Virus record (IMG/VR): IMGVR_UViG_3300050011_000078
Coordinates: 1-62,264 of that record
Source of the DNA: a virus
Strand: one strand, 5' to 3'
Length of the DNA stretch: 62,264 nt
Part shown: positions 57,276-61,036 of the stretch, piece by piece
Layout of the letters: the number at the start of each line of letters is the position of its first letter
Position numbering within the stretch: the stretch's first letter is position 1
Translations under genes and position numbers: made by a program
Notes under the pieces: model-generated
The model's input: only the letters and a program-made list of their open reading frames with translations
Database searches by the model: none
What the model was told of the DNA's origin: nothing

Positions 57276-57311
57276 GGAACGAATTTTCACGTCCAGGAAC
57301 GAATTTTCACG
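57276..57311. repeat. 20-bp tandem repeat at the end of the HNH gene
   Basis: GGAACGAATTTTCACG occurs at 57276-57291 and 57296-57311 with a 20-bp period. The second copy overlaps the HNH stop codon. It appears to be a local duplication. Confidence 0.75.
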
Positions 57312-57738
57312 CTTTCTTGGCTGGCTTCACGTCCTTAAACATCGGCCGGCGCGGCGGCAGGCTATCCAGCTTCGAGGGGCGCCGGGCGCGGTCGATCGCC
57401 TTTTGCGTCTTGGCGAAGTCGGCGCCTTTAAGCTCGGCCTTGGGGCGCGTGGCTCCGACGTGGGCTGCTTCCAAGCGCTTCGCACGCGCGATTGCGCTTG
57501 TATCGCCTGGCGTCTTGTCAGCATGGCACAATCGGCAGATGGCGCGGCAGTTCGAAAACGTCGCCTTCCCACCTAGGCCGTCCGCAATCTCATGATCGAA
57601 ATGCACACGGCCCTTGACGAGAGTGGCGTTGCAACGTGTCTTCGTGCCGTCCTCGCGGGTTACGTCGGCTTCGCATTTGAATTCTGCGAAATTCAGGCGC
57701 TTGACGCGGACGGCGGCCGAGAACTCTGTGCGGCTCAT
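57307..57738 (-). CDS. HNH endonuclease
   Basis: The 143-aa protein has the HNH core VHFDHEIADGLGGKATFSNC, then RAICRLCHADKT (paired CxxC and terminal His). The C-terminal half is basic. HNH enzymes near phage early genes may be packaging-related or free nucleases. This one lies far from terminase, in the leftward operon, and overlaps its neighbour by 4 bases. Confidence 0.85.
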   Translation of the reverse strand: MSRTEFSAAVRVKRLNFAEFKCEADVTREDGTKTRCNATLVKGRVHFDHEIADGLGGKATFSNCRAICRLCHADKTPGDTSAIARAKRLEAAHVGATRPKAELKGADFAKTQKAIDRARRPSKLDSLPPRRPMFKDVKPAKKA

Positions 57739-58106: not shown

Positions 58107-58300
58107 CGCGCCCTCTTTTCGTCCGTTGCGGCGTCGTGCCAAGTGAACGCGAGCTGACCCTCAGCGGTTATTGCATCGTCGCTCAACCCGCAGCCGTCGC
58201 AGGCCGGACATTCGATGCAAAACACTTCCTTTCCGCGGCGGTCGTGGATTGGATAGAGCCCAAGCCCTTCGCAGACATTGCATTTGTCATCGTCTTTCAT
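58103..58300 (-). CDS. Small zinc-ribbon protein (DnaJ-type CxxCxGxG)
   Basis: The start MKDDDKCNVCEGLGLYPIHD was chosen at the overlap with the upstream gene. Two cysteine pairs CNVCEGLG and CPACDGCG resemble the DnaJ zinc repeat. A longer frame upstream lies on another gene. Function unknown. Confidence 0.65.
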   Translation of the reverse strand: MKDDDKCNVCEGLGLYPIHDRRGKEVFCIECPACDGCGLSDDAITAEGQLAFTWHDAATDEKRAR

Positions 58301-58608
58301 GCGTGGGCCACCTTTTCGAGAAGCGCCAATCCTGGGAAAGCGCGGACGACACAGTGAATGCTTTCCTTGAAATCGCCGCGCCGCGCATTCCACTCAGCCT
58401 CCTCGACTAAGCGATCTTGCTCGGCAATCACTCGCATTTTTGCGTCATGATGGGACAAGATATTCATGCTACGATCGGTCGGCGCCTTTTTGCGCTCGCG
58501 CAACGCTTCGCGTTCGGCAATCGTGATTATGTCGCGGTACTGCAATTCGTCGATCATGTCGCGAGTTGAAAATTCGGAAATATCGACCTCGATTTTGACT
58601 GTTCTCAT
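58297..58608 (-). CDS. Hypothetical protein, copy A of a duplicated pair
   Basis: The 103-aa protein (EVDISEFSTRDMIDELQYRD, then IITIAEREALRERKKAPTDR, then NILSHHDAKMRVIAEQDRLV) shares its first 65 residues with the next gene upstream. The C-terminal 40 residues are unique. No family is recognised. Confidence 0.65.
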   Translation of the reverse strand: MRTVKIEVDISEFSTRDMIDELQYRDIITIAEREALRERKKAPTDRSMNILSHHDAKMRVIAEQDRLVEEAEWNARRGDFKESIHCVVRAFPGLALLEKVAHA

Positions 58609-58910
58609 GCTGATTTTCCTGCCTCCCGCTCCAGCGCATCGGAAACCTTGCATTTGTCATCGTCTTCCATTGCTCTCACTCCGTTGGATAAAAATTCGTT
58701 GCGGGGCGTTGCGAAGCGTCGCGGCGCGAGGCGTGCGGCAATCACTCGCATTTTTGCGTCATGATGGGACAAGATATTCATGCTACGATCGGTCGGCGCC
58801 TTTTCGCGCCCGCTCAACGCTTCGCGTTCGGCAATCGTGATTATGCCGCGGTATTGCAATTCGCCGATCATGGCGCGAGTGGAAAATTCAGCAATATCGA
58901 CTTCGACTTT
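58422..58910. repeat. Direct repeats of about 165 bp, roughly 90% identical
   Basis: The segment 58422-58590 recurs at 58736-58910 with an offset of about 314 bp. A smaller motif, TCACTCCGTTGGATAAA, also recurs at about 58678, 58921 (divergent) and 59134. The block looks like repeated unequal duplication of the early genes. Confidence 0.8.
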
Positions 58911-58925
58911 TATGCTCTCACTCAT
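58605..58925 (-). CDS. Hypothetical protein, copy B with a chimeric tail
   Basis: The 106-aa frame repeats copy A (EVDIAEFSTRAMIGELQYRG, then NILSHHDAKMRVIA). Its tail then includes FLSNGVRAMEDDDKCKVSDA, which resembles the ribosome site and start of the zinc-ribbon gene (MKDDDKCNV). It appears to be made by tandem duplication and fusion of adjacent genes. Confidence 0.6.
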   Translation of the reverse strand: MSESIKVEVDIAEFSTRAMIGELQYRGIITIAEREALSGREKAPTDRSMNILSHHDAKMRVIAARLAPRRFATPRNEFLSNGVRAMEDDDKCKVSDALEREAGKSA

Positions 58926-59115
58926 TTGATAAAAAATCGTTGCGTTGCGTAGCGTCGTAGGGGGAATGCCACGAAGGTCGATCAACCCAACTGATCTTGG
59001 CGATGCCGGGCTTTGGCCTGGGCACAGTCTCATGAGCGCTCGGGTATTGCCGGCGCAGAATGGTGGATTTCTGCACGTCTTCGTTAGATTTAACGCCTTT
59101 CTTACTCTGCATCAT
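58918..59115 (-). CDS. 65-aa hypothetical protein
   Basis: The protein (MMQSKKGVKSNEDVQKSTIL, then RRQYPSAHETVPRPKPGIAK) has AGGAGAATGG upstream and overlaps the next gene. It is basic and short. No family is recognised. Confidence 0.6.
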   Translation of the reverse strand: MMQSKKGVKSNEDVQKSTILRRQYPSAHETVPRPKPGIAKISWVDRPSWHSPYDATQRNDFLSNE

Positions 59116-59173: not shown

Positions 59174-59237
59174 TTGTAGCGAGGCGGCCCATCGACCGTC
59201 CGGGTTGCACCAAATTCACGGAGCCGTCTCGCTACAA
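59174..59237 (-). repeat. Palindromic element, copy 1
   Basis: A 15-bp stem (59174-59188 with 59223-59237, one G-U type pair) surrounds a 34-nt loop that starts CCATCG and ends ACGGA. It is flanked by AACTGGA and ACTGGAT. It lies in the 180-bp gap after the IS110-like gene. Confidence 0.8.
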
Positions 59238-59245
59238 ACTGGATC

Positions 59246-59303
59246 GGGAGTGATGGCCCACCAAGACCGCGGCGTGCATTTTCCCCTTGGAGCCATCACT
59301 CCC
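59246..59303 (-). repeat. Palindromic element, copy 2
   Basis: A perfect 12-bp stem GGGAGTGATGGC/GCCATCACTCCC surrounds a 34-nt loop (starts CCACCA, ends TTGGA). It follows copy 1 after ACTGGAT and precedes AAACTGG. The stem sequence differs completely from copy 1, but pairing is kept. Confidence 0.8.
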
Positions 59304-60318
59304 AAACTGGTGGATTGGAGGGGGACGGGCCAAGCGCCGGCTGGACTGTCACCTTAGGGTCGGACCAGTCCCTCTCCAAACTTGTGGCGGCGCCCAATTC
59401 CAGCGCGGGGTTCATGCTGCATTTGGAGCGCCGCCATTCGGACCAAAGGTCCGAAACCAAAGCCTTCGTCATAATCCGCAGCGCGTCCATGCGCGCGTGT
59501 GCGGGTTTCCAATCTGGGTGCGCGATGGCCGTCGCTTGCCTGCGGGCAATGTAGACATCGCCATAAGGCCCTTTCGGTCCTCCGTATTCGGTCCCAGACT
59601 TTTCCTTGCTCGTGAGCTGATGCTTGGACATGGGATCGGCGATGCAAGCGTGAATTTCAGCGCGTCGGGGCGGCTTGTATCCCGCGTCTGTCCATTCTTC
59701 CGCGGTTAGTCCGCCATTCATGCGCCATGTGGAATAGGCTTTGCCCTCATAGGGAGCAAGGCCGAGCCGTTTCCAAAGCATCTTGTGGTGAGGGTAGTTC
59801 GATAGGTTCCCTGATTCCGCGATAAGGACGGCGAGGCCGAGTGGTCCGAAACCCGCAACGCCGTCCGCCCATTCCGCTACCGGGAGAGAGCGCGTGAGCT
59901 TTTTCATTTCGCGTTCGATTTCCTCACGACGAATTTCGATGGGCGCGATAGACTTTCGAAAAACAGCCATATCGAGATCTATTGCCAGAGCGATTTCTGC
60001 ATCTTCTTCTTTAACCGGTTTTCCCTTTAGCAGAGCGGCCACAATGCTTTTAGCGCGCTTCTTTATCTCATCCCGGTCTTGCTCGCTCGCATCCGCAGCG
60101 AATCCGCAAATGCGTCGAGCATACGCGCCGGCCGCATTCGTGAGCTTGTTAGCGGCGTTGATATAAAGCTTCCGGCGCCGGCCGTGCAACATCATCGTCT
60201 CGCATACGGCTTGCAGATTGGAGGCCTCGACCGTGGAGACAGCTCCATTTTGGATTGCATCGATCAATTGGTCAGAACGGTCGAGGCTTTGGGTGGAACT
60301 TTGCATATCATGCGTCAT
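59296..60318 (-). CDS. IS110-like protein with Transposase_20 domain but no DEDD catalytic domain
   Basis: The 340-aa protein starts MTHDMQSSTQSLDRSDQLID after AGAGGA. Residues about 40-150 are helical, with a coiled-coil part (EIRREEIEREMKKLTRSLPV). Residues about 155-285 match the C-terminal half of IS110/IS116/IS902 transposases: GVAGFGPLGLAVLIAESGNL, then SNYPHHKMLWKRLGLAPYEG, ending near ARMDALRIMTKALVSDLWSE. The N-terminal RuvC-like DEDD domain is absent, so it cannot be a complete transposase. Its C-terminus is formed by palindromic copy 3. Role unknown. Confidence 0.7.
   Translation of the reverse strand: MTHDMQSSTQSLDRSDQLIDAIQNGAVSTVEASNLQAVCETMMLHGRRRKLYINAANKLTNAAGAYARRICGFAADASEQDRDEIKKRAKSIVAALLKGKPVKEEDAEIALAIDLDMAVFRKSIAPIEIRREEIEREMKKLTRSLPVAEWADGVAGFGPLGLAVLIAESGNLSNYPHHKMLWKRLGLAPYEGKAYSTWRMNGGLTAEEWTDAGYKPPRRAEIHACIADPMSKHQLTSKEKSGTEYGGPKGPYGDVYIARRQATAIAHPDWKPAHARMDALRIMTKALVSDLWSEWRRSKCSMNPALELGAATSLERDWSDPKVTVQPALGPSPSNPPVWE
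59315..59379 (-). repeat. Palindromic element, copy 3 (in the 3' end of the IS110-like gene)
   Basis: A 15-bp stem (59315-59329 with 59365-59379, one mismatch and one G-U type pair) surrounds a 35-nt loop. It is read in-frame as residues about 314-335 of the IS110-like protein (LERDWSDPK...GPSPSNP). Confidence 0.8.
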
Positions 60319-61036
60319 TGGCGATCCTCTCGGCTTTCTGAGCCATGCGTTGAAATTTCTTTGGGCTGATGCAGTCGCCGACGCGCGCGTCCGGATAGCT
60401 CGGGACAACACGCTTGAGCTGTTTCAGAACCGCCCCCTCATAGGCGCCTTCCCTGACCCGGAGAATTGACGAGGCAACCTTGCTATCGTTTTCCTTGATC
60501 AGGAGAGGCAGCGCGGAACATTTGATATCTGCCCACCGGGTGCCGTTGCGCATCTTCACTCTGTCGAAGACGCTCGGCCCGGACATGGCCTGCGCGTTCC
60601 TGACTATTGTCAGGAATGATTTTGGGGAAGAGGAGAGGCCGTCTGGATTGGAAGGGGATGGCCCATTTCCGAAGCGGCTTTCCAAGGGATCGTCGGCGCC
60701 GTCCCCTTCCAAATTTTCGGCGCGGGCAAAGAAACCATGGTTTTCACCCACTGACTGGCCCGCGCCGCCGGGCTCGCCCGGAACTGCTATCACCAGCCTG
60801 TGCGGCATCTCGCGCCAGACCAACATGAGATAATCAACCGCCGCCGCATGGATCGCGTCTGCTTTCAGATTGAGCAGCGCAATCAGCATCCCAGAACTAG
60901 CGAAGGTATTCATGAATTGCGGCATTGCGTTCTCGACGCTGCCGTTTCGGCTCAGCGCATTGTATGCTGCCGCGTAAAGGCGCGATCGGTCGGCTAGCGA
61001 GCCTTCCGACGATAGTTTTTCTGCGATCATTCTCAT
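60308..61036 (-). CDS. Hypothetical early protein carrying an in-frame palindromic element
   Basis: The 242-aa protein starts at an ATGA junction (MRMIAEKLSSEGSLADRSRL). Residues 1-105 are helical. Residues 109-130 are encoded by palindromic copy 4. Residues 135-242 include SVFDRVKMRNGTRWADIKCS and KVASSILRVREGAYEGAVLK. The element appears to be an insert tolerated between two domains. No family is recognised. It overlaps the IS110-like gene by 11 bases. Confidence 0.6.
   Translation of the reverse strand: MRMIAEKLSSEGSLADRSRLYAAAYNALSRNGSVENAMPQFMNTFASSGMLIALLNLKADAIHAAAVDYLMLVWREMPHRLVIAVPGEPGGAGQSVGENHGFFARAENLEGDGADDPLESRFGNGPSPSNPDGLSSSPKSFLTIVRNAQAMSGPSVFDRVKMRNGTRWADIKCSALPLLIKENDSKVASSILRVREGAYEGAVLKQLKRVVPSYPDARVGDCISPKKFQRMAQKAERIANDA
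60648..60712 (-). repeat. Palindromic element, copy 4 (inside the gene at 60308)
   Basis: A 15-bp stem (60648-60662 with 60698-60712, one G-U type pair) surrounds a 35-nt loop and is preceded by CTGGA. It is read in the same frame as copy 3, giving LEGDGADDP...GPSPSNP at residues about 109-130 of the host protein. Confidence 0.8.

What the first reader, a model, noticed from the sequence alone, without database searches (positions are those of the whole stretch)
59174..60712. Family of four palindromic elements with covarying stems and variable loops
Four elements of 58-65 bp (59174-59237, 59246-59303, 59315-59379, 60648-60712) share one design. Each has a stem of 12-15 bp and a loop of 34-35 nt beginning CCA. 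Flanks are CTGGA on the left and, in three of four, AAACT(T/G)G on the right. Stem sequences differ but pairing is kept, with G-U type replacements, so the structure is under selection or is copied as a unit. Two copies are read in-frame in two different proteins and end in the same peptide GPSPSNP. Two lie in tandem in the gap after an IS110-like gene. One reading is a selfish palindromic element that enters genes, like Rickettsia palindromic elements. Another is an RNA array with variable loops linked to the IS110-like protein, whose relatives use bridge RNAs. I cannot separate these two.
Basis: partly seen in the sequence, partly recalled or inferred. Interest (0 to 1): 0.85.

Follow-up and report, generated by a model that had tools for sequence, protein, structure and literature searches.

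The report
Phage dual-guide RNA array (TIGR-TasA)
The palindromes are six small guide-RNA hairpins flanking a gene for a guide-RNA-binding protein: a phage-borne TIGR-Tas system of the recently described stem-loop type, whose guide segments change wholesale between related phages while the rest of each hairpin stays the same.

Summary
The hairpins are real, but there are six, not four (two more at 59385-59436 and 60718-60767). All lie on the minus strand around a 340-aa gene (59296-60318). A fixed grammar describes every unit: variable palindromic stem, box C (CCR), 9-nt spacer A, a 9-10 nt loop repeat starting TG and ending CCR, 9-nt spacer B, then TG and the other stem arm. The "IS110-like" gene is not a transposase. 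By profile search and predicted fold it is a Tas protein with a Nop domain (best matches TasR and TasH) and has no nuclease domain, so it is TasA. In 15 related loci, 90 units lie on the gene strand within 2.5 kb of tas, 1 on the opposite strand, 0 elsewhere. This fits the stem-loop TIGR arrays of Faure et al. 2025 on every sequence feature tested. The selfish-palindrome reading is not supported; the RNA-array reading is essentially right. Apparently unreported: guides are hypervariable (35% identity) inside collinear arrays whose stems and flanks are 88-89% identical; units sit inside coding frames; a second conserved gene accompanies tasA. No target was found. RNA expression and DNA binding are inferred from the family, not shown.

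The parts
59174..59237 (-). TIGR stem-loop unit u1: spacer A TGAATTTGG, loop repeat TGCAACCCG, spacer B GACGGTCGA; 17-bp stem
59244..59305 (-). TIGR stem-loop unit u2: spacer A AGGGGAAAA, loop repeat TGCACGCCG, spacer B CGGTCTTGG; 16-bp stem; holds the stop codon of tasA
59315..59379 (-). TIGR stem-loop unit u3: spacer A ACCCTAAGG, loop repeat TGACAGTCCA, spacer B GCCGGCGCT; read in frame in the tasA C-terminal tail
59385..59436 (-). TIGR stem-loop unit u4 (not in the finding): spacer A AATGCAGCA, loop repeat TGAACCCCG, spacer B CGCTGGAAT; overlaps the 3' end of the conserved tasA coding region
60648..60712 (-). TIGR stem-loop unit u5: spacer A ACGATCCCT, loop repeat TGGAAAGCCG, spacer B CTTCGGAAA; in frame in the linker of the upstream gene
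60718..60767 (-). TIGR stem-loop unit u6 (not in the finding): spacer A GTCAGTGGG, loop repeat TGAAAACCA, spacer B TGGTTTCTT; 10-bp stem; in frame in the linker of the upstream gene
59296..60318 (-). tasA: Nop-domain protein without nuclease domain (P0001, 340 aa); the conserved part ends near 59425, the rest is a disordered tail encoded by units u4 and u3 and the start of u2
60308..61036 (-). partner gene (P0002, 242 aa), overlapping the tasA start; two predicted helical parts joined by a disordered linker (residues 73-137) that holds u6 and u5 (residues about 90-130)

Best explanation
This is a TIGR-Tas system of the stem-loop-array type encoded by a tailed phage, probably of an alphaproteobacterium. 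On the gene strand the order is: partner gene with u6 and u5 in its linker, tasA, then u4, u3, u2, u1; a single transcript is inferred from order and strand. Each hairpin would be released as one guide RNA whose stem replaces the edge repeat of ordinary TIGR arrays (shown for another stem-loop TasA in PMC12045711; inferred here). A TasA dimer would hold the edge boxes C and D in one subunit and the loop-repeat boxes in the other, presenting two 9-nt spacers. Spacer A would pair with one DNA strand and spacer B with the other, so the target reads A followed by the reverse complement of B with a gap of 0-2 bp (rule derived by me from the published TasR cut geometry). Without a nuclease domain the protein would bind, and probably bend or block, DNA at up to six programmed 18-bp sites, to silence or hinder a competing element or a host or phage gene rather than cut it. 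Shown here: hairpins, boxes, fixed 9-nt spacers, linkage to the gene across 16 loci including this one, Nop fold, absence of a nuclease domain, fast spacer turnover. Inferred: transcription, processing, DNA binding, biological purpose.
For: The grammar (stem, CCR, 9 nt, TG..CCR, 9 nt, TG, stem) fits exactly six places in 62 kb, all on the gene strand around tasA, with zero in shuffles. TasA profile against PDB sequences: best hits 9MTY (the TIGR-TasR structure of PMC12045711) E=1.3e-11 and TasH E=6.3e-7. Predicted fold (mean pLDDT 81, core mostly over 90): best VIA-align matches are TasH (Z 15.2, 211 residues) and TasR (Z 14.4), then IS110-family ISCro4 and IS621 (12.5, 12.1); Prp31 and Nop5-type proteins follow (9.0-7.0). 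The alignment to IS621 starts at IS621 residue 124-125, so the N-terminal catalytic domain is absent. Tas homologues were found in IMG/VR contigs, in two bacterial genomes and in Rhizobium phage RHph_X2_25. In 15 of these loci, 90 units lie on the gene strand within 2.5 kb, 1 on the other strand, 0 in the other 71 kb, mean 0.05 in shuffles. Published stem-loop TIGR arrays have the same anatomy: variable palindromic edges, two 8-12 nt spacers, boxes C and D, TasA without nuclease, processed single hairpins.
Against: No RNA data exist for this phage. No natural target was found: in about 1 Mb of related phage DNA the predicted geometry A+rc(B) scores no better than control geometries (17 places with 2 mismatches or fewer, against 13-25), and exact searches of IMG/VR with five spacer pairs gave 0, 0, 3, 0 and 8 stretches, the 8 being mostly one conserved gene of AT-rich phages, which chance can explain. 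No promoter-like site and no terminator-like site on the gene strand was found near the array. Four of the six units lie in coding frames, which is not mentioned in the parts of the TIGR paper that I read.
Confidence: 0.93

Rival explanations
1. Selfish palindromic element (like Rickettsia palindromic elements) that spreads by insertion, including in-frame into genes.
For: Units lie in frame in two genes and end in the same peptide; they occur in tandem and apart.
Against: Units are confined to the tas neighbourhood and to one strand (90 against 1, and 0 in the other 71 kb of the loci). Copies share only boxes and stem pairing, not sequence; no spacer is shared between any of the 96 listed units. 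Units at the same place in related phages keep the stem but change the spacers, the opposite of a decaying insertion.
Confidence: 0.02
2. An active IS110-family element with several bridge-RNA-like hairpins, that is, an RNA-guided transposon.
For: The Tas protein shares the C-terminal IS110 fold (ISCro4 Z 12.5, IS621 Z 12.1) and weakly matches Pfam Transposase_20 (E 0.0087, below its cut-off).
Against: No N-terminal DEDD/RuvC domain: alignment begins at IS621 residue 124-125 and the first 30 or so residues have no confident fold. TasH and TasR score higher. Many single hairpins instead of one two-loop RNA. No element boundaries or second copy seen.
Confidence: 0.02
3. The hairpins are cis-acting RNA or DNA structures (terminators, protein-binding sites) with no guide role; the constant spacer length is incidental.
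For: No target found; some units lie inside coding sequence.
Against: Exact 9-nt spacer lengths and TG/CCR-type boxes repeated twice per loop across many loci, and spacers that vary while boxes, stems and flanks stay (35% against 83-89% identity), are not expected of binding sites or terminators.
Confidence: 0.03

Closest known systems
Stem-loop TIGR array with TasA (Peromyscus leucopus gut contig; Faure et al., Science 2025, PMC12045711)
   Different: Six units here against 13; four of the six inside coding frames; a conserved second gene accompanies tasA. No RNA data yet for this locus.
Dual-repeat TIGR arrays with TasA/TasR/TasH
   Same: Unit order edge, spacer A, loop, spacer B; TG/CCA-type boxes; Nop protein related in sequence (TasR E=1.3e-11, TasH E=6.3e-7).
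   Different: No fixed edge repeat; the edge is a variable hairpin stem. No nuclease domain.
IS110-family transposase with bridge RNA (IS621, ISCro4)
   Same: Related C-terminal RNA-binding fold; guide RNA loops with two guide segments.
   Different: Lacks the N-terminal DEDD domain; many independent hairpins; no transposon ends seen.
Box C/D snoRNP (Nop5, Nop56/58, Prp31)
   Same: Nop fold (Z 7-9); RNA with two guides between boxes C and D.
   Different: DNA rather than RNA is the expected target (by family); L7Ae/k-turn and fibrillarin partners were not looked for beyond the neighbouring genes.
Rickettsia palindromic elements (recalled, not compared here)
   Same: Palindromes read in frame inside genes.
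   Different: Here confined to the tas locus, strand-specific, no shared sequence beyond short boxes and edges.

Membership tests
TIGR-Tas, stem-loop array type | Nop-domain (Tas) protein | tested here: met
   PDB profile search: TasR 1.3e-11, TasH 6.3e-7; fold: TasH Z 15.2, TasR Z 14.4
TIGR-Tas, stem-loop array type | tandem stem-loops with variable palindromic stems next to the tas gene | tested here: met
   six units, all flanking or overlapping tasA and its upstream neighbour; same in relatives
TIGR-Tas, stem-loop array type | two 8-12 nt spacers per unit flanked by box C (CCA-like) and box D (UG-like) | tested here: met
   9-nt spacers A and B, boxes CCR and TG in all six units; 93-unit table
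TIGR-Tas, stem-loop array type | nuclease-free protein = TasA | tested here: met
   no HNH or RuvC family hit; residues 1-30 not confidently folded and too few for a nuclease domain; alignment to TasH and TasR covers their Nop parts
TIGR-Tas, stem-loop array type | array transcribed and processed into single-hairpin RNAs bound by Tas | not testable with these tools
   needs RNP pull-down and small-RNA sequencing
TIGR-Tas, stem-loop array type | spacers direct binding to opposite strands of an 18-bp DNA target | tested here: inconclusive
   no target above chance in about 1 Mb of related phages or, for five units, in IMG/VR
IS110 transposon with bridge RNA | N-terminal DEDD/RuvC-like catalytic domain | tested here: not met
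   alignment starts at IS621 residue 124-125; the first 30 or so residues of P0001 have no confident fold
IS110 transposon with bridge RNA | one RNA with target-binding and donor-binding loops at the element end | tested here: not met
   six separate single-stem units
Rickettsia-type palindromic element | copies dispersed in many genes of the genome | tested here: not met
   confined to the tas neighbourhood
Any Rfam family | covariance-model match | tested here: not met
   no family reaches its threshold in this region

The most novel reading that the evidence does not exclude
In rhizobial-type phages the stem-loop TIGR-TasA system is a three-part unit (tasA, a previously unnamed conserved partner gene, and an array partly written inside coding frames) whose 9-nt guides are replaced at fixed array positions while stems, boxes and flanking DNA are kept. 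That would mean guide renewal without insertion of new units, unlike CRISPR adaptation, with TasA plus partner acting as a programmable DNA-binding complex against competing elements.
Probability: 0.4. Interest if true: 0.85.

Novelty: new member of a known kind. Interest (0 to 1): 0.62.

Why it matters
TIGR-Tas was described in 2025. Its natural targets, the function of nuclease-free TasA, and how its arrays gain new guides were left open in that paper. This locus and its relatives supply a set of alphaproteobacterial phages, including a catalogued one (Rhizobium phage RHph_X2_25, MW960032.1) and loci in the genomes of Rhizobium esperanzae and Shinella sumterensis, in which these questions can be tested in culturable hosts. 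The comparison of closely related phages indicates that guide turnover happens inside existing units, which any model of array evolution must explain. The accompanying conserved gene is a candidate TasA partner; the members tested match nothing in PHROGs, and the TasA proteins match a PHROG labelled transposase.

Tried and rejected
(1) Rfam, at gathering threshold and by E-value: no credible match here; one tRNA elsewhere in the window. (2) BLAST of the region against 50,697 phage records: no match. (3) L010, fetched as a P0002 relative, shows no homologous open frame of the right layout and no hairpins near the match; treated as spurious. (4) Natural targets: no excess over control geometries in 979 kb of related phage DNA; exact IMG/VR scans gave 0 (u1), 0 (u5), 3 (u4), 0 (u3) and 8 (u6) stretches, of which 7 of the u6 hits are one conserved gene of AT-rich phages. 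u2 was not scanned. (5) Fold of the partner protein: low confidence (mean pLDDT 63, only the C-terminal part confident) and no PDB match at E<1; profile search of PDB gave nothing credible. (6) Homology of the window partner (P0002 plus L014) with the partner family of the other loci: not detectable by hhalign (probability 0.3%), although place and layout agree. (7) PADLOC: no hit.

Full report
OBSERVATION. The window is an IMG/VR virus record of 62,264 bp with tailed-phage genes (terminase, portal, tape measure, baseplate). The four reported palindromes are present. A covariance model of the four flagged a fifth in tandem, and a hairpin scan a sixth. Read on the minus strand, the strand of the neighbouring genes, every unit is: stem arm, box C (CCR), 9 nt, a 9-10 nt segment that starts TG and ends CCR, 9 nt, TG, stem arm. 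A scan for this grammar finds exactly six places in the whole window on both strands, all on the minus strand between 59174 and 60767, and none in 60 Markov shuffles. A looser arm-based count gives one plus-strand place (4772) and, at 7 of 9 pairs, one more on the minus strand (57081); I take both as chance.

GENE. The "IS110-like" gene starts at 60318 and runs to 59296 (340 aa). Relatives: 32% identity in L009, Rhizobium phage RHph_X2_25, two genomes, Rhizobium esperanzae and Shinella sumterensis, and 14 IMG/VR loci, one of which is the L009 contig again. A 16-member profile hits, among all PDB sequences, 9MTY (the TasR structure deposited with the TIGR-Tas paper) at 1.3e-11 and TasH at 6.3e-7, nothing else credible. 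The AlphaFold model (mean pLDDT 81; core mostly above 90) matches TasH (Z 15.2, 211 residues, rmsd 3.2) and TasR (Z 14.4) best, then IS110-family ISCro4 and IS621 (12.5, 12.1), with Prp31 and Nop5-type proteins lower. The alignment with IS621 starts at its residue 124-125, so the catalytic RuvC-like domain is missing. Residues 311-340, encoded by the array, are disordered. Hence: a Nop-domain protein without nuclease, TasA in the published naming.

ARRAYS IN RELATIVES. Hairpins with a constant loop (mostly 30 nt inside the stem) flank the Tas gene in nearly every relative. Under a strict 9/10-nt-loop grammar, 90 units lie on the gene strand within 2.5 kb of tas in 15 loci, 1 on the opposite strand, 0 in the remaining 71 kb, and a mean of 0.05 in shuffled sequence. 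In L009 each unit is GGTGCCA-N9-TGAAACGCCA-N9-TNGCGCC with one exception, a textbook TIGR unit. The box D letters of edge and loop tend to vary together (TG/TG here and mostly in L018, CG/CG in most rhizobial phages), as the TIGR paper reports for its arrays. In the nearest relative L014 (48% identity) the loop repeat is 15 nt and can itself form a small hairpin (for example GCCGGAAACGGC), so loop repeats differ between loci. Over 93 units the outer stem positions carry many standard pair types while the innermost C-G is invariant, in keeping with the C-G contact of boxes C and D described for TasR. The units were selected for pairing, so I rest the case on strand bias, boxes and spacer length.

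IDENTITY. [quoted passage not shown] Every sequence feature testable here is met. Function is by family: TasR and TasH pair spacer A with one strand and spacer B with the other. From the published 8-nt 3' overhang and C-5 rule I derive that the target strand reads A then reverse complement of B; this derivation is mine.

WHAT MAY BE NEW. (a) Guide turnover. L013 (Shinella) and L023 (phage contig) are collinear around tas. Identity is 88% in flanks, 89% in stems, 83% in loop repeats, but 35% in the spacers; the other two pairs show the same direction (totals 81, 87, 77 and 43%). Units with near-identical stems in different phages have spacers at background identity (25-26% against 27%). So guides are replaced inside existing units. 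(b) Coding overlap. In the window u4 and u3 form the tasA C-terminal tail and u5, u6 lie in the disordered linker of the upstream gene; in L014 a unit occupies the linker of the homologous gene and others the N-terminal extension of tasA; in L018 and L020 the long open frame upstream of the Tas core runs through units. Whether these stretches are translated is unknown. (c) Partner gene. A family of about 170-270 aa lies next to tas in 12 loci (upstream in most, downstream in L022 and L024), with L018 marginal. The window and L014 have a mutually homologous gene at the same place (E about 1e-7), not detectably related to that family. The PHROGs scan found no family for the partner proteins tested, and one member hits DUF6793 weakly. 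The TIGR paper mentions ParB-like partners for dual-repeat TasA loci; no ParB or other credible PDB match was found here.

LIMITS. No RNA evidence. No target found. One paper was read in depth; its supplements could not be opened, so (a)-(c) may be partly known there. Host of the window phage not determined; GC 0.59 and the relatives suggest an alphaproteobacterium.

Noticed in passing
L013:3300-5860 against L023:2650-5860: Collinear TIGR arrays at 88% flank identity whose spacers are only 35% identical while stems are 89% identical: guides appear to be replaced in place.
   Followed up: yes
window 60308-61036; L014:3881-4642; L011:4498-5097 and homologues in other loci: Conserved gene next to tasA in stem-loop TIGR loci, upstream in most, downstream in L022 and L024; no PHROG and no fold match.
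   Followed up: partly
L014:4296-4998: Units with a 15-nt loop repeat that can itself form a mini-hairpin (for example GCCGGAAACGGC), unlike the 9-10 nt loop repeats elsewhere.
   Followed up: partly
L018:4320-4944 and L020:4281-4953: Open frame continues 200 aa or more upstream of the Tas core through TIGR units; unclear whether translated or just a GC-rich open frame.
   Followed up: no
L011:5512-6567 (QWY83253.1, Rhizobium phage RHph_X2_25); phrog_4285: TasA annotated as hypothetical protein, and the matching PHROG named transposase (integration and excision); likely misnaming of Tas proteins.
   Followed up: partly
window 58501-58596 and 58815-58910: 96-bp direct repeat, 91% identical, inside two neighbouring small open frames (58297-58653 and 58605-59033): local duplication next to the array.
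   Followed up: no
window 57307-57738: Free-standing HNH endonuclease gene downstream of the array on the same strand; probably an ordinary phage HNH, but a nuclease close to TasA is worth a test.
   Followed up: no
L015:4798-4972: Three tandem hairpins with 28-nt loops just upstream of the Tas gene that the unit grammar does not parse; a possible further variant of the array.
   Followed up: no
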